Assembly (NCBI GenBank): GCA_944385585.1
Contig: CALWXU010000006.1
Location: forward strand, 1-45,295
DNA length: 45,295 nucleotides
Direction: 5' to 3'
Source: an uncultured Flavonifractor sp.
Lineage (GTDB): Bacteria > Bacillota > Clostridia > Oscillospirales > Oscillospiraceae
The notes under the pieces are model-generated. The model made no database searches. It was not told the origin of the DNA and was given only the letters and a program-made list of their open reading frames with translations. Position numbers and translations under genes: made by a program. Below are positions 7,391-28,038 of the stretch, piece after piece. How positions within the stretch are numbered: position 1 is the first letter of the stretch; each line of letters starts with the position of its first letter.

Positions 7391-7443
7391 TGGTAATTTA
7401 GTTTACCATCTTTTTTGCGTTTGGTAAACAGGTGTGTTATAAT
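7391..7443 (+). promoter_or_regulatory. tsaE promoter with overlapping inverted repeats
   Basis: TTGCGT (7415-7420), 17 bases, TATAAT (7438-7443). The half-site TGGTAAA/TTTACCA occurs three times (7391-7396, 7402-7408, 7422-7428) around the -35, forming palindromes, so a repressor operator is possible. Confidence 0.65.
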
Positions 7444-7475
7444 CTTGTCAGAATCTTCACATTTTGAGGTGAGCC

Positions 7476-7904
7476 ATGGAACTGCTATCCCATTCGCCGG
7501 AGGAGACCGAGGACATCGGCGCCCGGCTGGCCCAGCGGCTGGGCCCCGGCGCCGTGGTGGCCTTCACCGGCGACCTGGGGGCGGGCAAAACCGCCTTTAC
7601 CCGGGGCCTGGCCCGGGGCCTGGGCATCCCCGACCGGGTCACCAGCCCCACCTTCACCATCGTCAACGAGTACGAGGGGGGCCGGCTGCCCCTGTTCCAC
7701 TTCGATATGTACCGGCTGGGCTCCGCCGACGAGCTGTTCGACATCGGCTGGGAGGACTACCTCCGCCGGGGGGGCGTGTGCGCCGTGGAGTGGAGCGAGA
7801 ACATCGCCGACGCCCTGGAGGAGGACACCGTGCGGGTGGATATCCGCCGGGGGGGCTCCGACCAGGAGCGGAGCATTACCATCACGGGGGTGAGCGCGCT
7901 GTGA
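7476..7904 (+). CDS. tsaE: tRNA N6-threonylcarbamoyladenosine biosynthesis ATPase TsaE
   Basis: A 142-residue P-loop ATPase that supports the TsaBD complex in making t6A37 on ANN-decoding tRNAs. Walker A is GDLGAGKT at about 32-39, followed by the family block [13 protein letters not shown] and [10 protein letters not shown], then a C-terminal [13 protein letters not shown] at 7476 follows GAGGTGAG. Length matches the family. Its last codons overlap the tsaB start (GTGA), so the two are translationally coupled. Confidence 0.95.
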
Positions 7905-8611
7905 AAATCCTGGCTCTGGAGTCCTCCGCCGTGGCCTGCTCGGCGGCCCTGTGCGAGGACGAGAACCTGATCGCCCAGGCCTTCCAGAACAACGGCCTGA
8001 CCCATTCCGTCACCCTGCTGCCCATGGCCGCCGCCCTGCTGGAGCAGTGCGGCGTCTCCCTGGAGCAGGTGGAGGTCGTCGCCGTGGCCGCCGGCCCCGG
8101 CTCCTTCACCGGGGTGCGCATCGGCGTGGCCGCCGCCAAGGGGCTGGCCTGGCCGGGCGGCAGGCCCTGCGCCGCCTGCTCCACCCTGGAGTCCATGGCC
8201 TGGGGCGTGGCCCACATGGGCATGGATATCTGCGCCGTCATGGACGCCCGGCGGAGCCAGGTGTACAACGCCCGGTTCCGCGGCGCCGGGGAGGGGCTGG
8301 AGCGGCTCACCCCCGACCGGGCCGTCGGCCTGGACGCGCTGGCGGAGGAGCTAAAAAACCGGGAGGAGCCGCAAATTCTGGTTGGAGACGGCGCGGTTTT
8401 ATGCTATACTAGGCTCAAGGAGCTGGGGCTGGACGTCCGGCTGGCGCCGCCCCACCTGCGGCAGCAGAGCGCCTGGGGGGTTGCCCGGTGCGCCCTGGAG
8501 CTGGCCCGGGCGGGCAGGCTCACCGACGCGGCCTCGCTGGCGCCAGAATACCACCGGCTCTCCCAGGCGGAACGGGAGCGGCTGGAAAAAGAACGAAACA
8601 AAGGGGAATGA
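7901..8611 (+). CDS. tsaB: t6A biosynthesis protein TsaB
   Basis: A 236-residue ASKHA-fold protein, partner of TsaD in t6A synthesis and of TsaE. It starts with GTG at 7901, overlapping the tsaE stop. Family signs are [16 protein letters not shown] at the N-terminus and AVAAGPGSFTGVRIGVAAAKGL around 60-82. The C-terminal third is charged and variable, as usual. In many Firmicutes rimI and tsaD follow; here upp follows three bases later, so tsaD must lie elsewhere. Confidence 0.95.
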   Translation: MKILALESSAVACSAALCEDENLIAQAFQNNGLTHSVTLLPMAAALLEQCGVSLEQVEVVAVAAGPGSFTGVRIGVAAAKGLAWPGGRPCAACSTLESMAWGVAHMGMDICAVMDARRSQVYNARFRGAGEGLERLTPDRAVGLDALAEELKNREEPQILVGDGAVLCYTRLKELGLDVRLAPPHLRQQSAWGVARCALELARAGRLTDAASLAPEYHRLSQAERERLEKERNKGE

Positions 8612-22002: not shown

Positions 22003-22031
22003 TTGACAGGGGCGGAAACTCCTGCTATACT
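22003..22031 (+). promoter_or_regulatory. Promoter of the ABC-F leader
   Basis: TTGACA (22003-22008), 17 bases, TATACT (22026-22031). This is near-consensus, so the leader should be made constitutively and control left to the RNA downstream. Confidence 0.85.
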
Positions 22032-22064
22032 GTGGGCGATTTGAATACGATTGGAGCTGGGAAG

Positions 22065-22076
22065 ATGCGCAAATAA
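22065..22076 (+). CDS. Three-codon upstream ORF (Met-Arg-Lys) in the ABC-F leader
   Basis: ATG CGC AAA TAA, about 26 bases after the predicted transcription start, with a GGAG / GGGAAG purine stretch upstream. Downstream are a stem of ACGGAC/GTCCGT with inner GGCCC/GGGCC (22093-22122), a small CTCC/GGAG hairpin and then a terminator. Very short upstream ORFs are known in leaders of ABC-F resistance genes, where a drug-stalled ribosome changes RNA folding. That role here is inference. Confidence 0.6.
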   Translation: MRK

Positions 22077-22188
22077 CCTTCTTTGTCTGGAGACGGACCG
22101 GCGGCCCTGGCGGGCCGTCCGTGCTGCTGTGCTCCGGCAGGAGGGTCGTTTGCTGCGCTTCCCTGTTTCGCACCCTTTTAGACCCAGT

Positions 22189-22223
22189 GGGCGCGGGAGG
22201 CCACCCCTCCTGCGCCCATTTTT
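22189..22223 (+). terminator. Attenuator terminator in front of the ABC-F gene
   Basis: GGGCGCGGGAGG (22189-22200) / CCTCCTGCGCCC (22206-22217) pair over 12 bases with a single G-U, loop CCACC, followed by ATTTTT. It lies 21 bases before the ABC-F start, inside its own leader. An alternative pairing of CGCACCC (22169-22175) with GGGCGCG (22189-22195), six of seven bases, would break the terminator. Confidence 0.8.
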
Positions 22224-22243
22224 CATGTTTGAGGTGATGCACC

Positions 22244-23734
22244 ATGGCTCTGATCGACATCCGCAGCCTGACCTTTGCCTACCCCGGCAGCTTTGACAAC
22301 GTGTTTGAGGGGCTCAATCTCCAGCTGGACACCAGCTGGCGGCTGGGCCTGGTGGGCCGCAACGGCCGGGGCAAGACCACCCTGCTGCGTCTGCTCCGGG
22401 GGGAGTACGAGTATGCCGGCGCCATCTCCGCGCCGGTGGAGTTTGACTATTTCCCGCCGCCGGTGGCCCACCCGGAGGCGGACGCCCGGGCTGTGCTGGA
22501 GGAGCTGGAGCCCGGTCTGGAGGCGTGGCGGCTGCTCCGGGAGCTGGCCGCCCTGGAGGTGGACGAGAGAGTGCTGGACCGGCCCTTTTCCGCCCTCTCC
22601 GGCGGGGAGCAGGCAAAGGTGCTCCTGGCCGCCCTCTTCCTGCGGGAGGGGGCCTTCCCCCTGCTGGACGAGCCCACCAACCACCTGGATCTGGAGGGGC
22701 GGCAGGTGGTGAGCCGCTGGCTCTCCCGCAGGGAGGGCTTTCTGCTCGTCTCCCACGACCGGGCCTTTCTGGACGGCTGCGTGGACCACATCGCCGCCCT
22801 CAACAAGCTGGACGTGGAGGTGCGGCAGGGCAATTTCTCCGCGTGGCAGCGGGACAAGCAGGCCCGGGACGACTGGGAGCGGGCGGAGAACGCCCGCCTG
22901 AAAAAAGAGATCGGCCGGCTGGAGGAGGCTGCCCGGCGCACCTCCGCCTGGTCCGACCGGGTGGAGGCCACCAAGAAGGGCACCCGCAGCGCCGGCCTGC
23001 GGCCAGACCGGGGCTTCATCGGCCACAAGGCCGCCAAGATGATGAAGCGCTCCAAGGCCGTGGAGGCCCGCCGGGAGGAGGCCGTGCAGGCCAAGTCCGC
23101 CCTGCTGAAAAACATCGAGGCGGAGGAGGAGCTGAAGCTCCGCCCCCTCACCCACCCCAAGGCCCGGCTGGTGGAGGTGAGGGACGCCGCCCCCGACTTC
23201 GGCAGCGGCCCGGTGTGCGCCCCCGTCTCCTTCACGGTGGAGCGGGGGGAGGTGGTGGCCCTGGCGGGGCGGAACGGCTGCGGCAAGTCCAGCCTGCTTA
23301 AGCTGGCCTGCGGAGAGGCCGTCCCCCACACCGGTGTGTTCTCCCTGGCCTCCGGGCTCACGGTGTCCTATGTGCCCCAGGACGCCGCCTTCCTCCGGGG
23401 CTCCCTGCGGGAGCTGATCCGGGACAGCGGCGTGGACGAGACCCTGTGCAAGGCCATCCTGCGCAAGCTGGGCTTCTCCCGGGCGCAGTTTGACAAGGAC
23501 ATGGCCGACTACAGCGCCGGACAGAAGAAAAAGGTGCTTCTGGCCAGAAGCCTGTGCCAGAGCGCCCACCTGTACGTCTGGGACGAGCCGCTGAACTACA
23601 TCGACGTGTTCTCCCGCATGCAGCTGGAGACGCTGCTCCAGGCCTGCCGCCCCGCCATGCTCCTGGTGGAGCACGACCGGGCCTTTCTGGACGCCCTGGC
23701 GGACAAGGTCGTGGCGCTGGAGGCCGCCCGCTGA
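22244..23734 (+). CDS. Lsa-type ABC-F ribosome-protection protein
   Basis: A 496-residue cytoplasmic protein with two ABC ATPase domains and no membrane part. Domain 1: Walker A GRNGRGKT (38-45), ALSGGEQ near 117, DEPTNHLD near 142. The interdomain linker (about 190-300) contains WSDRVEATKKGTRSAG and GFIGHKAAKMMKRSK, which is characteristic of the Lsa/Vml branch. Domain 2: GRNGCGKS near 341, ADYSAGQKKKVLLA near 422 (SAGQ in place of SGGQ), and DEPLNYIDVFSR near 446. These proteins enter the E site and expel lincosamides, pleuromutilins or streptogramins A from the peptidyl-transferase centre. ATG at 22244 has GAGGTG upstream. The leader carries an uORF and attenuator. No terminator separates it clearly from the van genes downstream. 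Confidence 0.9.
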   Translation: MALIDIRSLTFAYPGSFDNVFEGLNLQLDTSWRLGLVGRNGRGKTTLLRLLRGEYEYAGAISAPVEFDYFPPPVAHPEADARAVLEELEPGLEAWRLLRELAALEVDERVLDRPFSALSGGEQAKVLLAALFLREGAFPLLDEPTNHLDLEGRQVVSRWLSRREGFLLVSHDRAFLDGCVDHIAALNKLDVEVRQGNFSAWQRDKQARDDWERAENARLKKEIGRLEEAARRTSAWSDRVEATKKGTRSAGLRPDRGFIGHKAAKMMKRSKAVEARREEAVQAKSALLKNIEAEEELKLRPLTHPKARLVEVRDAAPDFGSGPVCAPVSFTVERGEVVALAGRNGCGKSSLLKLACGEAVPHTGVFSLASGLTVSYVPQDAAFLRGSLRELIRDSGVDETLCKAILRKLGFSRAQFDKDMADYSAGQKKKVLLARSLCQSAHLYVWDEPLNYIDVFSRMQLETLLQACRPAMLLVEHDRAFLDALADKVVALEAAR

Positions 23735-23756
23735 CCGGGCCGGCCCTGTCAGGTAT

Positions 23757-23823
23757 TTGTAAGATTTCCGCCAGAGAATCGTAAGGCCACGGTCGGCTGA
23801 ATGTCAGAAATGTCTGCTATACT
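23757..23823 (+). promoter_or_regulatory. vanG-like promoter with two direct repeats
   Basis: -10 TATACT (23818-23823) with no recognisable -35 at 17 bases (GGCTGA). Upstream are two direct repeats TTGTAAG (23757-23763) and TCGTAAG (23779-23785), 22 bases or two helix turns apart, ending about 32 bases before the -10. This is the layout expected for an OmpR-family activator such as VanR. Confidence 0.5.
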
Positions 23824-23868: not shown

Positions 23869-24921
23869 ATGAAGAAGCAGACCCTTGCCGTCCTGTTCGG
23901 CGGCTGTTCCTCGGAGTACGACATCTCCCTCCAGTCCGCCCACGCGGTGCTCACCCACCTGGACGGGGAGAAATACGAGCCGGTCCCCCTGGGCATCACC
24001 CGGGACGGCCGGTGGTTCCTCTACCGGGGGCCCTTCGACGCCCTGCTGGACGACAGCTGGCACGCCGACCCCCGCCATCTCACCCCCGCCGTGATCTCCC
24101 CGGACCGGGGGGTGCACGGCCTGCTCCTCATCGCCCCCGCCGGGCCCTCCACCGTGTACCTGGACGCCGCCTTCCCGGTGCTCCACGGCAAAAACGGGGA
24201 GGACGGCACCGTCCAGGGCCTGCTGGAGCTGGCCGGCGTGCCGGTGGTGGGGTGCGGGGTGCTCCCCTCCGCCCTGTGCATGGACAAGGACGCGGCCCAC
24301 CGGCTGGCCGCCGCCGCGGGGGTGGCGGTTCCCCCCTCCGCCCTGTTCCGCTCCGGGGAGGACATGGCCCTGCTGCCCGGGCGCACGGCGGGGCTCGCCT
24401 ACCCCCTCTTTGTCAAGCCCGCCCGGGCGGGCTCCTCCTTCGGCATCTCCAAGGTGGATTCCCCCGACGGGCTGGCCGCCGCCGTGGCCGCCGCCCTGGA
24501 GCACGACTACAAGGTGGTGATCGAGGAGGCCGTCCCCGGCTTCGAGGTGGGCTGCGCCGTGCTGGGCAACGAGGAGCTCACCGTGGGGCTGGTGGACGAG
24601 ATTGAGCTGTCCGGCGGGTTCTTCGACTTCACGGAGAAGTACCATCTGGTCACCTCCGCCATCCACGTGCCCGCCCGCATCGCCCCGGAAAAGGCGGCGG
24701 AGATCCAGGAGACGGCCAAGGTGCTCTACCGGGCCCTGGAGTGCCGGGGCTTCGCCCGGGTGGATCTGTTCCTCACACCCGGCGGGCACATCGTGTTCAA
24801 CGAGATCAACACCATCCCCGGCTTCACCGCCCACAGCCGCTACCCCAGCATGATGAAGGGGGTCGGCCTGGACTTCCCCCAGCTGCTGGACAAGCTGATC
24901 GGACTGGCGGTGGGCGCATGA
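23869..24921 (+). CDS. vanG: VanG/VanC-class D-alanine:D-serine ligase
   Basis: A 350-residue ATP-grasp ligase. GGCSSEYDISLQSAHAVL at the start, HGKNGEDGTVQGLLELAGVPVVGC near 106, SALCMDKDAAH near 139, KPARAGSSFGISKV, and NEINTIPGFTAHSRYPSMM near 311 are ligase landmarks. The omega-loop reads FFDFTEKY at 251-258; Glu-Lys-Tyr here is typical of D-Ala-D-Ser ligases (VanC/E/G), whereas VanA/B D-lactate ligases have Lys-Gln-His and housekeeping Ddl a Tyr-containing variant. The product would replace terminal D-Ala with D-Ser in peptidoglycan precursors and lower vancomycin affinity. ATG at 23869 after GGGAGG. The following VanXY- and VanT-type genes confirm the assignment. Confidence 0.88.
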   Translation: MKKQTLAVLFGGCSSEYDISLQSAHAVLTHLDGEKYEPVPLGITRDGRWFLYRGPFDALLDDSWHADPRHLTPAVISPDRGVHGLLLIAPAGPSTVYLDAAFPVLHGKNGEDGTVQGLLELAGVPVVGCGVLPSALCMDKDAAHRLAAAAGVAVPPSALFRSGEDMALLPGRTAGLAYPLFVKPARAGSSFGISKVDSPDGLAAAVAAALEHDYKVVIEEAVPGFEVGCAVLGNEELTVGLVDEIELSGGFFDFTEKYHLVTSAIHVPARIAPEKAAEIQETAKVLYRALECRGFARVDLFLTPGGHIVFNEINTIPGFTAHSRYPSMMKGVGLDFPQLLDKLIGLAVGA

Positions 24922-25643
24922 GGGGCACGCTGTATCTGGTGAACCGGGCCCACCCCCTGGCCGGGGAGCCGGAGGCGGAGGCCCTGTCGCCCGTGGACGG
25001 CAGCCGCCCCCAGATCCGGCTCCACCAGCGGGCCAGGGTCATGCTGGACCAGCTGCTCACCGCTGTGGACGGCAGGGCCGCCATCGTGCCGGTGAGCGGC
25101 TACCGCCCCCGCTCCGAGCAGCAGGCCATCTGGGACGGCTCCCTGGCCGAGCACGGGCAGGCCTTCACCGAGACCTACGTGGCCCGCCCCGGGTGCAGCG
25201 AGCACCAGACCGGCCTGGCCATCGACCTGGGAGAGAGGCGGCCGGACATCGACTTCCTCTGCCCCGCCTTTCCCGACGACGGCCCCTGCGGGGCCCTGCG
25301 CCGCCGGGCCGCCGACTACGGCTTTGTGCTCCGCTACCCCAGGGGCAAGGAGGCCGTCACCGGCATCGGCCACGAGCCGTGGCACTTCCGCTACGTGGGC
25401 TGGCCCCACGCCAAGCTGATGGAGAAGCACCACCTGGTGCTGGAGGAGTACCTGGCGTGGCTCCACGACTTCCCCCTGGGGTCAGAGCCCCTGCGGTATC
25501 AGGGGCTGGGCCGGAGGTTTGAGATCAGCTATGTGCCAGCGGAGCAGGCGGCGGGGCTGGAGCTCCCCGCCCGGGTGCCCTGCCAGCAGTCCGACACCAA
25601 CGAGGGCGGCGTGGTGCTGACGGTGTGGAGGGACGCGGGATGA
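24918..25643 (+). CDS. vanXY: VanXY-type D,D-dipeptidase/carboxypeptidase
   Basis: A 241-residue zinc peptidase of the VanY/VanXY family, starting with ATG at 24918 in an ATGA overlap with the ligase stop. VSGYRPRSEQQAIW near 55, GCSEHQTGLAIDLGE near 93 (ligands His96 and Asp103) and the catalytic EPWHFRYVG at 153-161 with His156 are all present. It removes D-Ala-D-Ala dipeptide and terminal D-Ala so that only D-Ser-ended precursors remain. No signal peptide is visible, which fits cytoplasmic VanXY rather than membrane VanY. A tail of about 55 residues after the catalytic core (GRRFEISYVPAEQAAG and beyond) makes it longer than VanXY-C. Confidence 0.87.
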   Translation: MRGTLYLVNRAHPLAGEPEAEALSPVDGSRPQIRLHQRARVMLDQLLTAVDGRAAIVPVSGYRPRSEQQAIWDGSLAEHGQAFTETYVARPGCSEHQTGLAIDLGERRPDIDFLCPAFPDDGPCGALRRRAADYGFVLRYPRGKEAVTGIGHEPWHFRYVGWPHAKLMEKHHLVLEEYLAWLHDFPLGSEPLRYQGLGRRFEISYVPAEQAAGLELPARVPCQQSDTNEGGVVLTVWRDAG

Positions 25644-27760
25644 GGGGAAACACACTGGGGGGCTTTGACCGCTTCCGCCTCCCCGCCGCCCTGCTGGTGG
25701 CGGCCATCCACACCGGGCCCCTGCTGTCGGTGAGCCCCTTTGCCAACGACCTGCTCACCGACATCTGGGGGCGGATTGCCGTCCCCTTCTTCTTCGCCGT
25801 CAGCGGCTGGTTCCTGGTGCCCAGGCTCCGGCGGGAGGGGGTGGCGGCCCTGGGGCCCTTTCTGAAGAAAACCCTGCTGCTCTATCTCCTGTCCGCCCTG
25901 CTCTACCTGCCCCTGAACCTCTACAACCACACCCTCCAGGACAGCGGGGCCGCCCTGCTGCGGGACATCTTCTTCAACGGCACCTTCTACCACCTGTGGT
26001 ACTTCCCCGCCCTGGCGCTGGGGGCCTGCATCGTCTGGGCCCTGGTGCGGGGGCTTGGAAAGCGGGCCTGGCTGCCCGCGGTGCTCCTCTACCTGATCGG
26101 CCTGCTGGGGGACAGCTGGTACGGCCTCACCGCCGCCCTGCCGCCGGTACGTGCCGCCTACGAGGGGATGTTCCTCTGCTTCGACTACACCCGCAACGGC
26201 CTGTTCTCCACCCCCATCTTCCTGCTGCTGGGGGGCTGGCTGGCCCAGCGGCCCCGGCGGGGTGGGGCCGGGCGGTACAGGGCTGGCCTGCTGGTCTCCC
26301 TGGCCCTGCTGACGGCGGAGGGCCTGCTGGTCAAGCACTTTTCGCTGGCCCGGTTCGACGCCCTCTACCTCACCCTCCCCCTGTGCGTAGGGTTTCTCCT
26401 CCTGTGGCTGGCCGCCCTGGAGCTGCCGGCCATCCCCGCCCTCCGTGGGTGGACGGCGGCCATCTATGTGCTCCACCCCTGGTGCATCGTGCTGGTGCGG
26501 GGCGGGGCGCGGGTGGTTGGCCTCACCGGAGCGCTGGTGGACAACAGCCTGGGCCACTACGGGGCGGTGGTGCTCCTGTCCGCCCTGCTGGCCCTCCCCT
26601 TTGCCTTTCTCCGCCCCGCCAGGGCCGACCCCAGGGGGAGGGCGTGGATTGAGATCGACGCCGCCGCCCTGCGGCACAACCTGTCCGCCCTCTCCGCCCT
26701 GCTGCCCCAGGGCGGAAGGCTCATGCCGGTGGTGAAGGCCAACGCCTACGGCCATGGAGACCTGACCGTGGCCCGCATCTGTGCCGGGGAGGGCATCCGC
26801 GCCTTCGCCGTGGCCACCGCCTCCGAGGGTGCGCGCCTGCGGCGGGGCGGCGTGCGGGGCGCCATCCTTGTGCTGGGGTACACCGGCCCCCGGGAGGTTC
26901 CCCTGCTGGCCCGCTGCCGCCTGACCCAGACCGTGGTCAGTGCCGAACACGCCCGGGCCCTGGACGCCGCCGGACATCGGATTGCGGTGCACCTGAAGAT
27001 CGACACCGGCCTCCACCGGCTGGGCATCCCCTGGGACGACGTGGAGGGCCTGGTGGCCCCCTTTGCCTGCCGGAGCCTGAAGGTCACCGGCGTGTTCACC
27101 CACCTGTCCGACGCGGAGGCCCTGGACGAGGCCAGCCAGGCGCGCACCCAGGAGCAGCTCCGGCGGTTCCAGCAGGCGGTGGAGGGGCTGCGCAGGGCCG
27201 GGTTTGACCCGGGGGCGGTCCACTTCCAGGGCAGCTACGGCCTGCTCAACTACGGCGGCCTGCCCTGCGATTACGCCAGGCCGGGCATCGCCCTCTACGG
27301 GGTATTCAGCGCTCCGTCGCACCATACCCGTTCGGCGGTGGAGCTGCGGCCCGTCCTCTCCCTCCGGGCACGGGTGGCCCAGCTCCACCGCCTGGAGGCG
27401 AGGGAGGCGGCGGGCTATGACGGCTCCTTCACGGCCCGGCGGCCCACGGTGCTGGCCGCCCTGGCCATCGGCTACGCCGACGGCTGGCCCAGGAGCCTGT
27501 CCAGCGGGGCGGGGCGGGTGCTCCTCCACGGCCAGCCGGCCCCTGTGGCCGGCCTGGTGTGCATGGACCAGCTGCTGGTGGATGTGACCGACATTCCGGA
27601 CGTCTCCCCCGGCGACATCGCCACCCTGGTCGGCCGGGACGGCCCCGCGGAGCTGTTCGCCGGGCAGACCGCTCTGGCCGCCGGCACCATCACCAACGAG
27701 CTGCTCTCCCGCCTGGGGCCCCGCCTGCCCCGGCTGACGGTTAACGACCTCCCGTCATAA
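25640..27760 (+). CDS. vanT: VanT-type membrane-bound serine racemase
   Basis: A 706-residue fusion. Residues 1-330 form an acyltransferase-3-like membrane domain with about ten helices (PAALLVAAIHTGPLL, VPFFFAVSGWFLVPRL, LYVLHP-like YVLHPWCIVL); residues 335-706 are a fold type III alanine-racemase domain. PLP Lys366 lies in VVKANAYGHG, and the second catalytic Tyr near 612 in AIGYADGWPRS; VCMDQLLVDVTD closes the dimer site. VanT imports or senses L-Ser and makes D-Ser for the ligase. ATG at 25640 overlaps the vanXY stop (ATGA) with GGAGGG upstream. This gene is found only in D-Ser-type van clusters, so it is the strongest evidence for the cassette. Confidence 0.9.
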   Translation: MRGNTLGGFDRFRLPAALLVAAIHTGPLLSVSPFANDLLTDIWGRIAVPFFFAVSGWFLVPRLRREGVAALGPFLKKTLLLYLLSALLYLPLNLYNHTLQDSGAALLRDIFFNGTFYHLWYFPALALGACIVWALVRGLGKRAWLPAVLLYLIGLLGDSWYGLTAALPPVRAAYEGMFLCFDYTRNGLFSTPIFLLLGGWLAQRPRRGGAGRYRAGLLVSLALLTAEGLLVKHFSLARFDALYLTLPLCVGFLLLWLAALELPAIPALRGWTAAIYVLHPWCIVLVRGGARVVGLTGALVDNSLGHYGAVVLLSALLALPFAFLRPARADPRGRAWIEIDAAALRHNLSALSALLPQGGRLMPVVKANAYGHGDLTVARICAGEGIRAFAVATASEGARLRRGGVRGAILVLGYTGPREVPLLARCRLTQTVVSAEHARALDAAGHRIAVHLKIDTGLHRLGIPWDDVEGLVAPFACRSLKVTGVFTHLSDAEALDEASQARTQEQLRRFQQAVEGLRRAGFDPGAVHFQGSYGLLNYGGLPCDYARPGIALYGVFSAPSHHTRSAVELRPVLSLRARVAQLHRLEAREAAGYDGSFTARRPTVLAALAIGYADGWPRSLSSGAGRVLLHGQPAPVAGLVCMDQLLVDVTDIPDVSPGDIATLVGRDGPAELFAGQTALAAGTITNELLSRLGPRLPRLTVNDLPS

Positions 27761-27764
27761 AACG

Positions 27765-27793
27765 AGGGCCGGAAGCTTCCGCTTCCGGCCCTC
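27765..27793. repeat. 29-bp hairpin direct repeat, left copy
   Basis: AGGGCCGGAAG, CTTCCG, CTTCCGGCCCT plus C: a perfect inverted repeat that lies five bases after vanT and could serve as its terminator. Identical to 28010-28038. Confidence 0.9.
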
Positions 27794-28008
27794 CAGGCTG
27801 TCGAAAAACCCTCCCCGAAGGAAAGCCTCGCAGAGTTCCTGCGGCCGCAGCCGCAGGAATCAAATCAAAATCCGTCATTTCCAAGGACATGTGCCTTGGA
27901 AATGACACTTCTCATGGTGGAAGGGGTGACTTTTTCGCAAGAAAACGAGCCCCTCCCACCATGCAATCTTTCTCGAAAAAGCGGCTTTGCCGCTTTTTCG
28001 ACACGCTG
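27794..28008. mobile_element. MITE-like element of nested hairpins
   Basis: A 215-bp segment with 15-bp inverted ends: CAGGCTGTCGAAAAA (27794-27808) and the complement of CAGCGTGTCGAAAAA (27994-28008), 13 of 15 matching. Inside are four further hairpins: TTCCTGCGGC/GCCGCAGGAA (27836-27859), GTCATTTCCAAGG/CCTTGGAAATGAC (27874-27906), CATGGTGG-AAGGGG with CCCCTCCCACCATG (27913-27963, one mismatch) and TCGAAAAAGCGG/CCGCTTTTTCGA (27973-28001). No coding capacity. The 29-bp repeats abut it on both sides (one spare base on the right). This explains the whole vanT-to-28051 gap. Confidence 0.7.
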
Positions 28009-28009
28009 A

Positions 28010-28038
28010 AGGGCCGGAAGCTTCCGCTTCCGGCCCTC
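28010..28038. repeat. 29-bp hairpin direct repeat, right copy
   Basis: Identical to 27765-27793. It lies 12 bases downstream of the phosphodiester glycosidase stop on the minus strand and may act as that gene's transcript end. Confidence 0.9.

What the first reader, a model, noticed from the sequence alone, without database searches (positions are those of the whole stretch)
23869..27760. VanG-type vancomycin-resistance cassette (ligase, VanXY, VanT) without vanR/vanS
Three coupled genes form a minimal D-Ala-D-Ser pathway: a ligase with FFDFTEKY in its omega-loop, a VanXY peptidase with SEHQTGLAID and EPWHF, and a serine racemase with PLP Lys in VKANAYGHG fused to an acyltransferase-3 membrane domain. 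Enterococcal vanG operons carry regulators and vanW/vanY; here none adjoins, so control must come from elsewhere or be constitutive. A native chromosomal set in a commensal would be a reservoir for transferable resistance.
Basis: partly seen in the sequence, partly recalled or inferred. Interest (0 to 1): 0.85.

Follow-up and report, generated by a model that had tools for sequence, protein, structure and literature searches.

The report
VanG resistance operon with distant switch
A gut bacterium related to Flavonifractor carries three genes predicted to change its cell wall so that vancomycin would bind poorly, and its matching VanR and VanS-like regulator genes are not beside them but on a separate piece of the genome, from where they likely switch the operon on.

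Summary
In detail: vanG, vanXY and vanT lie at 23869-27760, joined by ATGA overlaps, with no vanR/vanS beside them. The ligase passes the curated VanG cut-off and its closest solved structure is VanG; a separate Ddl lies elsewhere. The cassette is an ordinary VanG-type operon (VanG over cut-off in 45 of 200 family genomes sampled).

The title's 'without vanR/vanS' is only local. A VanR above its cut-off and a VanS-like kinase lie on another contig, divergent, and 11-bp VanR-box-like repeats (23746-23789) precede vanG, the best such array in the window. The split is shared: VanR is off the vanG contig in three congeners and 1.6 Mb from vanG in a single-contig genome. A supported branch parts the own VanR and 11 of 14 detached ones from all 38 operonic VanRs in the tree; ten VanRs on the same side come from genomes without detected vanG. 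Promoters beat shuffles for the box in 9 of 10 unlinked-VanR genomes and in 2 of 12 where VanR was not found.

Control in trans, inducibility and resistance are inferred, not measured. The window's boxes are degenerate. No sign of mobility was found.

The parts
23746..23789 (+). Four 11-bp VanR-box-like direct repeats upstream of vanG: 23746 CTGTCAGGTAT, 23757 TTGTAAGATTT, 23768 CCGCCAGAGAA, 23779 TCGTAAGGCCA. A further look-alike, 23801 ATGTCAGAAAT, lies in the spacer between the -35 position and the -10; the register between (23790) does not match
   Evidence: Model built from 41 relatives with vanR/vanS beside vanG: best place in the window on both strands; in-register sums of two or more repeats are highest here; 0 of 300 shuffles reach it; GTAAG core kept in all 7 promoters aligned
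23818..23823 (+). Predicted -10 hexamer TATACT with TG one base upstream; the -35 position 17 bp further up (23795-23800, GGCTGA) is poor
   Evidence: sequence; TGNTATACT shared with L032 and L033
23869..24921 (+). [quoted passage not shown]
   Evidence: NCBIfam VanG above cut-off; PDB 4fu0 443 bits; D243, F252 and R324 as in VanG relatives (and VanA), unlike DdlA and the genome's own Ddl
24918..25643 (+). vanXY-like D,D-peptidase, ATGA overlap with vanG
   Evidence: PF02557; best PDB hit 4f78; below curated NCBIfam cut-offs
25640..27760 (+). vanT, acyltransferase-3 membrane domain fused to a serine racemase domain, ATGA overlap with vanXY
   Evidence: PF01757, PF01168, PF00842; VanT-G C-terminal model above cut-off; Asn, as in 4ecl, where two alanine-racemase entries shown have Tyr and one Gln
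27764..27793 (.). Hairpin after vanT (13-bp stem, 4-base loop); the scan calls it terminator-like for the - strand only, there is no T run on the + strand
22244..23734 (+). Neighbour, probably not part of the operon: Lsa-type ABC-F gene 134 bp upstream of vanG, same strand
   Evidence: NCBIfam ribo_prot_ABC_F 434 bits (cut-off 380); Lsa model 674.5 (cut-off 750); found in the held flanks of 0 of 80 relatives, some of them short

Best explanation
Window 23869-27760 carries a VanG-type operon (ligase, VanXY-like peptidase, VanT) that is predicted to replace D-Ala-D-Ala by D-Ala-D-Ser in the cell wall and is likely switched on in trans by VanR and a VanS-like kinase, whose genes lie on another contig of the same genome. 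Shown: the three genes; a separate Ddl; a VanR above its curated cut-off and a VanS-like kinase on contig C11; VanR-box-like repeats before vanG; the same split in relatives, including one single-contig genome. Inferred: the kinase senses a glycopeptide or cell-wall stress and phosphorylates VanR, which binds the repeats and recruits RNA polymerase to a promoter lacking a good -35; VanT makes D-Ser, VanG makes D-Ala-D-Ser, VanXY removes D-Ala-D-Ala, and MurF and later steps build precursors that bind vancomycin weakly.
For: Genes. Own Ddl elsewhere. VanR (374 bits, cut-off 350) and VanS-like kinase (best model VanS, 352, cut-off 400; next model 176) on C11. Promoter repeats; published VanRG consensus (T/C)CGTANGAAA(T/A)T in three direct repeats (PMC4405338, passages). 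The motif also lies just upstream of vanR in the own genome (L029:5908) and between vanR and sprT in L175-L177. Split shared: vanR off the vanG contig in the three congeners shown and 1.6 Mb from vanG in single-contig G078; VanR also off the vanG contig in F. plautii ATCC 29863 and Flavonifractor sp. An10. Contrast: fewer than 15 of 300 shuffles as good in 9 of 10 unlinked-VanR genomes, against 2 of 12 where VanR was not found; U test p=0.0003.
Against: The window's boxes are degenerate: 14.3 bits, against 20 or more in 28 of the 41 training promoters; the other 13 training promoters lack a clear site themselves. F. plautii's promoter is weak (28 of 300 shuffles as good), as is L200 (23 of 300); two genomes without a found VanR also pass. 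The box model was seeded by me with a motif first seen by eye in these promoters. VanXY and the kinase miss their curated cut-offs. The recognition helix of this VanR differs from the operonic consensus. In E. faecalis VanRG does not bind its own promoter (PMC4405338), unlike what a box upstream of vanR here would suggest. VanR also occurs in 14 genomes without detected vanG. The genome is a MAG-like draft, 81% complete. No expression, binding or MIC data.
Confidence: 0.75

Rival explanations
1. The operon is expressed constitutively, or only by read-through from the upstream ABC-F gene, and VanR has no role here.
For: No terminator-like site was found on the + strand between the ABC-F stop and vanG, the ABC-F gene has a near-consensus promoter at 22003-22031, and vanG has a TGNTATACT -10.
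Against: The box array is the best in the window and is kept in relatives whose held flanks lack the ABC-F gene.
Confidence: 0.13
2. Another two-component system drives vanG, for example one of the two other OmpR-type regulators in the window or a DacRS-like system.
For: OmpR-type regulators share direct-repeat sites (general knowledge); PMC11326576 (passages) cites work in which DacS induced the vanG cluster in C. difficile 630, while it finds no vancomycin response of DacS in R20291.
Against: Only the C11 protein passes the VanR cut-off among the 24 matches in the genome; the boxes are mostly absent where VanR was not found.
Confidence: 0.07
3. The cassette is a cryptic or silent relic that gives no resistance, as proposed for some clostridial van operons.
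For: Incomplete or cryptic vanG-type sets are reported in clostridia (PMC5073890, PMC4405338; passages).
Against: All three frames are intact, the motif residues compared are kept, and the four genomes of the genus shown by the sample all have the ligase.
Confidence: 0.05

Closest known systems
vanG operon of Enterococcus faecalis BM4518 (vanURS, then vanY-W-G-XY-T)
   Same: Ligase, VanXY and VanT of the G type in the order G-XY-T; VanR-type direct repeats upstream of a promoter with a poor -35 (PMC4405338, passages)
   Different: No vanU, vanR, vanS, vanY or vanW beside the operon; VanR and VanS-like genes on another contig; boxes degenerate and in 11-bp steps
vanG-type cluster of Clostridioides difficile (vanR, vanS, vanG, vanXY, vanT)
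   Same: Three-gene G-XY-T core (PMC11326576, passages)
   Different: There vanR/vanS belong to the cluster (their adjacency is recalled); here they are far away
vanGXT without vanRS in Paenibacillus thiaminolyticus/dendritiformis (PMC11273654, passages)
   Same: G-X-T core without adjacent regulators, in genomes that also have vanRSY
   Different: A parenthesis there; no promoter sites or trans control in the passages seen
Unlinked VanR/VanS-like pairs of the same family (this work: G022, G118, G182, G078, G160 and others)
   Same: VanR 372-383 bits on the VanR model; VanS 66-77% identical over nearly full length in nine vanG-bearing relatives
   Different: Also present in genomes without detected vanG (G064, G074, G160 and others); in G078 and G160 vanR and vanS are themselves not adjacent

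Membership tests
VanG-type D-Ala-D-Ser resistance operon | Ligase of the VanG family, not housekeeping Ddl | tested here: met
   529 bits, cut-off 495; control genomes 0 of 14 at E<=1e-110; groups with 19 other VanG rows (83/92) apart from the own Ddl, DdlA and VanA, with long-branch warnings
VanG-type D-Ala-D-Ser resistance operon | VanXY bifunctional peptidase | tested here: inconclusive
   Best hits are the VanXY-G model and structure 4f78, zinc-site motifs present, but below both curated cut-offs
VanG-type D-Ala-D-Ser resistance operon | Membrane serine racemase VanT | tested here: met
   VanT-G C-terminal 497 bits, cut-off 460; AT3 domain; closest structure 4ecl. The full-length VanT-CELN model is missed (542, cut-off 900)
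VanG-type D-Ala-D-Ser resistance operon | vanR/vanS (and vanU) in the operon | tested here: not met
   None beside the operon
VanG-type D-Ala-D-Ser resistance operon | VanR binding repeats at the resistance promoter | tested here: inconclusive
   Repeats stand out against shuffles and the rest of the window but are degenerate; binding not tested
VanG-type D-Ala-D-Ser resistance operon | Inducible vancomycin resistance, D-Ser precursors | not testable with these tools
   needs MIC and LC-MS
VanR response regulator (NF033117) | Curated score cut-off | tested here: met
   374 bits, cut-off 350
VanS histidine kinase (NF033091) | Curated score cut-off | tested here: not met
   351.7 bits, cut-off 400, though the best model by far (next 176); so 'VanS-like'

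The most novel reading that the evidence does not exclude
The unlinked VanR/VanS is an old chromosomal cell-wall stress system of the Oscillospiraceae, kept also where no vanG is detected, and the vanG operon is one target plugged into it through promoter repeats; operonic vanRS-vanG clusters would be a separate or later arrangement.
Probability: 0.3. Interest if true: 0.7.

Novelty: new variant of a known kind. Interest (0 to 1): 0.5.

Why it matters
Screens that call a van operon incomplete because vanR/vanS are not adjacent would mislabel these commensals as regulator-less or silent. If control in trans is real, a resistance operon can be run by a resident chromosomal sensor, which bears on how van clusters are assembled and on whether a G-XY-T core alone can be a regulated unit. 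It also offers a natural experiment on what VanR/VanS do in genomes without vanG.

Tried and rejected
Extra VanR boxes in the genome: the pattern YGTAAGAAAWT gave 3 sites, control 0; one lies just upstream of vanR on C11, one inside a coding frame, one is half of a perfect hairpin between an ftsL-like and a PBP-like gene (named from their sequences), so only the first was kept. A stricter pattern in 12 relatives gave 1 site in 1 genome, which I did not follow. Rfam: no match in the window.

D243/F252/R324 as D-Ser-specific: recalled from the VanG structure paper, which is not held; VanA shares all three in my alignment, so they separate Van ligases from Ddl, not Ser from Lac.

Contig-end artefacts: of the 17 vanG genomes whose VanR is not just upstream of vanG (my reading of the places), G165, G058, G013 and G079 look like operons cut by contig ends and were not used as unlinked cases; G091 and G032 were kept apart.

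Rows dropped: VanR tree, 2 of 71 rows by a length filter (L066 and one row from a genome without detected vanG). Promoter test, 3 of 15 VanR-not-found loci not located by the script. A first version (11 against 12, with G032 among the 11) gave p=0.0002; there 9 of 12 located detached promoters held YGTMAG and 0 of 12 VanR-not-found ones did.
Full report
WHAT IS THERE. The window is a whole contig (G000:C6, 45,295 bp) of a 2.42-Mb, 198-contig genome, 81% complete. On the + strand lie vanG 23869-24921, vanXY 24918-25643 and vanT 25640-27760, each joined to the next by an ATGA overlap. The closest VanG in the named-genome scan is that of Flavonifractor sp. An10 (93% identity), then F. plautii ATCC 29863 (81%); so the host is probably a Flavonifractor or near it. 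This is inference from one gene; no formal taxonomy was run.

ENZYMES. The ligase scores 529 bits on the curated VanG model (cut-off 495). In the PDB its best match is VanG 4fu0 (443.5 bits), then VanA entries (313-331), then Ddl (at most 249). The genome's other ligase (G000:C2, upstream of a MurF-like frame judged from its sequence) matches Ddl (249 bits) far better than VanG (126) and passes two Ddl models. The third hit looks like the start of a biotin carboxylase (judged from its sequence). In a 23-row tree the window ligase sits in a six-row set (95/91) with Flavonifractor and near VanG proteins; all 20 VanG rows are parted from VanA, DdlA and the own Ddl (83/92), with warnings about long branches. 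VanXY has its best structural match in 4f78 (209 bits) and carries the SxHxxGxAxD and EPWH motifs, but lies below the curated cut-offs (205 of 500; 204 of 250). VanT has an AT3 domain and an alanine-racemase-type domain and passes the VanT-G C-terminal model (497, cut-off 460), not the full-length VanT-CELN one (542, cut-off 900). It has Asn, as 4ecl does, where two of the three alanine racemases printed have Tyr and one Gln; that this position sets Ser preference is recalled.

REGULATORS. The genome has 24 matches to the VanR model; one, on C11 (5142-5837, - strand), passes the cut-off. On the same contig a VanS-like kinase (7421-8605, + strand, start codon my choice; 352 bits on the VanS model, cut-off 400) is transcribed away from it, with a collagen-like gene and a SprT-like gene between. 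Neither is at a contig end (C11 is 31,510 bp).

PROMOTER SITES. Of 80 named-genome relatives kept (one search had more matches than the 80), 41 have vanR and/or vanS just upstream of vanG and 39 do not (some loci are cut by contig ends). A 23-position model, seeded by me with the motif and trained on those 41 promoters, has the consensus ATCGTAAGAAAATCGTAAGAATT, two 11-bp repeats; 28 of 41 score 20 bits or more, the other 13 lack a clear site. It agrees with the published VanRG site (T/C)CGTANGAAA(T/A)T, three direct repeats at the E. faecalis resistance promoter (PMC4405338, passages). The window was not in the training set. Its best place, both strands, is 23745 (14.3 bits; next elsewhere 11.1). 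Summing three in-register repeats gives 19.1 bits at 23746 and -2.8 at the next separate place. For a single repeat the best place is 27935, inside a multi-copy intergenic repeat, so single boxes mean little. The pattern TYGTAAG-N14-16-TYGTAAG, written after seeing the window, occurs once in the genome, here; control 0. The GTAAG core is kept in all seven promoters aligned, among them An10, F. plautii and a Flavonifractor MAG. The four repeats end five bases before the -35 position, which is poor; the -10 is TATACT.

IS THE SPLIT REAL? In a family sample a VanG-model match at E<=1e-110 is in 71 of 200 genomes, 45 of 200 over the curated cut-off, including the four genomes shown from the window's genus. 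I gave the 54 of 71 with 459 bits or more to the VanR search: 39 of 54 have a VanR (E<=1e-84, 37 over cut-off); by my reading of the places, in 22 one lies just upstream of vanG and in 17 it lies elsewhere. Four of the 17 (G013, G058, G079, G165) look like operons cut by contig ends. In G078, one contig of 4.31 Mb, vanG is at 2.379 Mb, vanS at 3.990 Mb and vanR at 4.002 Mb. In the three congeners vanR is divergent from a sprT-vanS pair and the box lies between them. F. plautii and An10 have the same type of VanR on a contig other than that of vanG; F. plautii has a second VanR, next to a VanS of operonic type. I did not look further for VanS in these two.

A SEPARATE LINEAGE. In a 69-row VanR tree a branch with support 100/90 puts the own VanR, 11 of 14 detached VanRs and 10 of 15 VanRs from genomes without detected vanG on one side, with the long-branched outgroup, and all 38 operonic VanRs with the rest on the other. 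The matching VanS proteins are 66-77% identical over nearly full length in nine vanG-bearing relatives (G182, G022, G118, G078, G056, G068, G089, G050, G030) and 74% over a partial match in G019; G045 had none. The others matched at 41-51%, one fragment in G119 at 50% and one short piece in G019 at 81%. VanS also occurs at 60-70% in four genomes without detected vanG (G064, G074, G143, G160); in G160, one contig, vanR and vanS are about 190 kb apart. Pseudoflavonifractor phocaeensis carries both an operonic pair and an unlinked pair. So 'regulators moved out of the operon' is not the only history; two lineages coexist.

NATURAL CONTROL. Among 10 vanG promoters of unlinked-VanR genomes, 9 have a best score that fewer than 15 of 300 dinucleotide shuffles reach; among 12 located promoters (of 15) of genomes where VanR was not found, 2 do (U test on scores p=0.0003). 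The window has 0 of 300; An10, F. plautii and the MAG pass in 2 of 3, F. plautii failing with 28 of 300; G032 passes. Genomes are incomplete, so some 'not found' may be missed genes, and related genomes are not independent.

AGAINST. The boxes in this lineage are degenerate (TCAG for TAAG, GG after it), and the recognition helix of its VanR differs from the operonic consensus (HIRRLREK against HIARLREK, and V for A just before it). This may be co-variation or weakening; I cannot tell. In E. faecalis VanRG does not bind its own promoter (PMC4405338), whereas here a box lies upstream of vanR. Fourteen genomes have a VanR at E<=1e-100 without detected vanG, so VanR is not a private vanG regulator.

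KNOWN OR NEW. PMC11273654 (passages) mentions vanGXT without vanRS in two Paenibacillus that also have vanRSY, and vanRS without ligases in several bacteria. PMC11326576 (passages) cites an unlinked system, DacRS, acting on vanG in C. difficile 630, and finds DacS unresponsive to vancomycin in R20291. My searches (capped listings of an open-licence library, for example 15 of 71 papers) showed no title or abstract about a conserved unlinked VanR/VanS for vanG in Flavonifractor; most papers were not opened. Verdict: the operon is an ordinary member of the VanG kind; the conserved remote regulation is a new variant.

MOBILITY. No mobile-element domain among 30 window ORFs scanned (8 had no match and some of these may be the wrong frame); downstream genes are syntenic in L032 and L034. 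VanG-type ligases do occur in two Subdoligranulum records filed as plasmids, among 60 of 594 plasmid records listed; the one I opened is typed non-mobilizable.

Noticed in passing
window 22003-23734: Lsa-type ABC-F gene upstream of vanG with a near-consensus promoter (22003-22031), a tiny reading frame MRK* (22065-22076), a very stable leader fold (z -6.3) and a terminator-like hairpin (22186-22220) before its start: looks like a ribosome-sensing attenuator. Not found in the held flanks of 80 relatives.
   Followed up: partly
window 27794-28010: Intergenic repeat just after vanT; 30 matches in the own genome counting itself, eight others of 150 bits or more at 74-91% identity.
   Followed up: partly
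L029:5964-6806: Collagen-like gene between vanR and the SprT-like and VanS-like genes; collagen-like matches also lie beside vanR in An10 and F. plautii, none seen in L175-L177.
   Followed up: partly
G160:C1 and G078:C1: Single-contig genomes in which VanR and VanS genes are themselves apart (about 190 kb and about 10 kb).
   Followed up: partly
L253, L258 (Pseudoflavonifractor phocaeensis): One genome with both an operonic vanRS-vanG and an unlinked vanR/vanS pair.
   Followed up: no
L064 (Pseudoflavonifractor sp. An184): The vanG frame read from its start ends after 91 residues; possibly a broken gene or a sequencing error.
   Followed up: no
OY725857.1 and OY725879.1 (plasmid records of Subdoligranulum variabile): vanG-type ligases on records filed as plasmids, one with vanXY and vanT.
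   Followed up: no
L230:1498-1530 (G000:C69): A VanR-box-like word forms half of a hairpin between an ftsL-like and a penicillin-binding-protein-like gene.
   Followed up: partly
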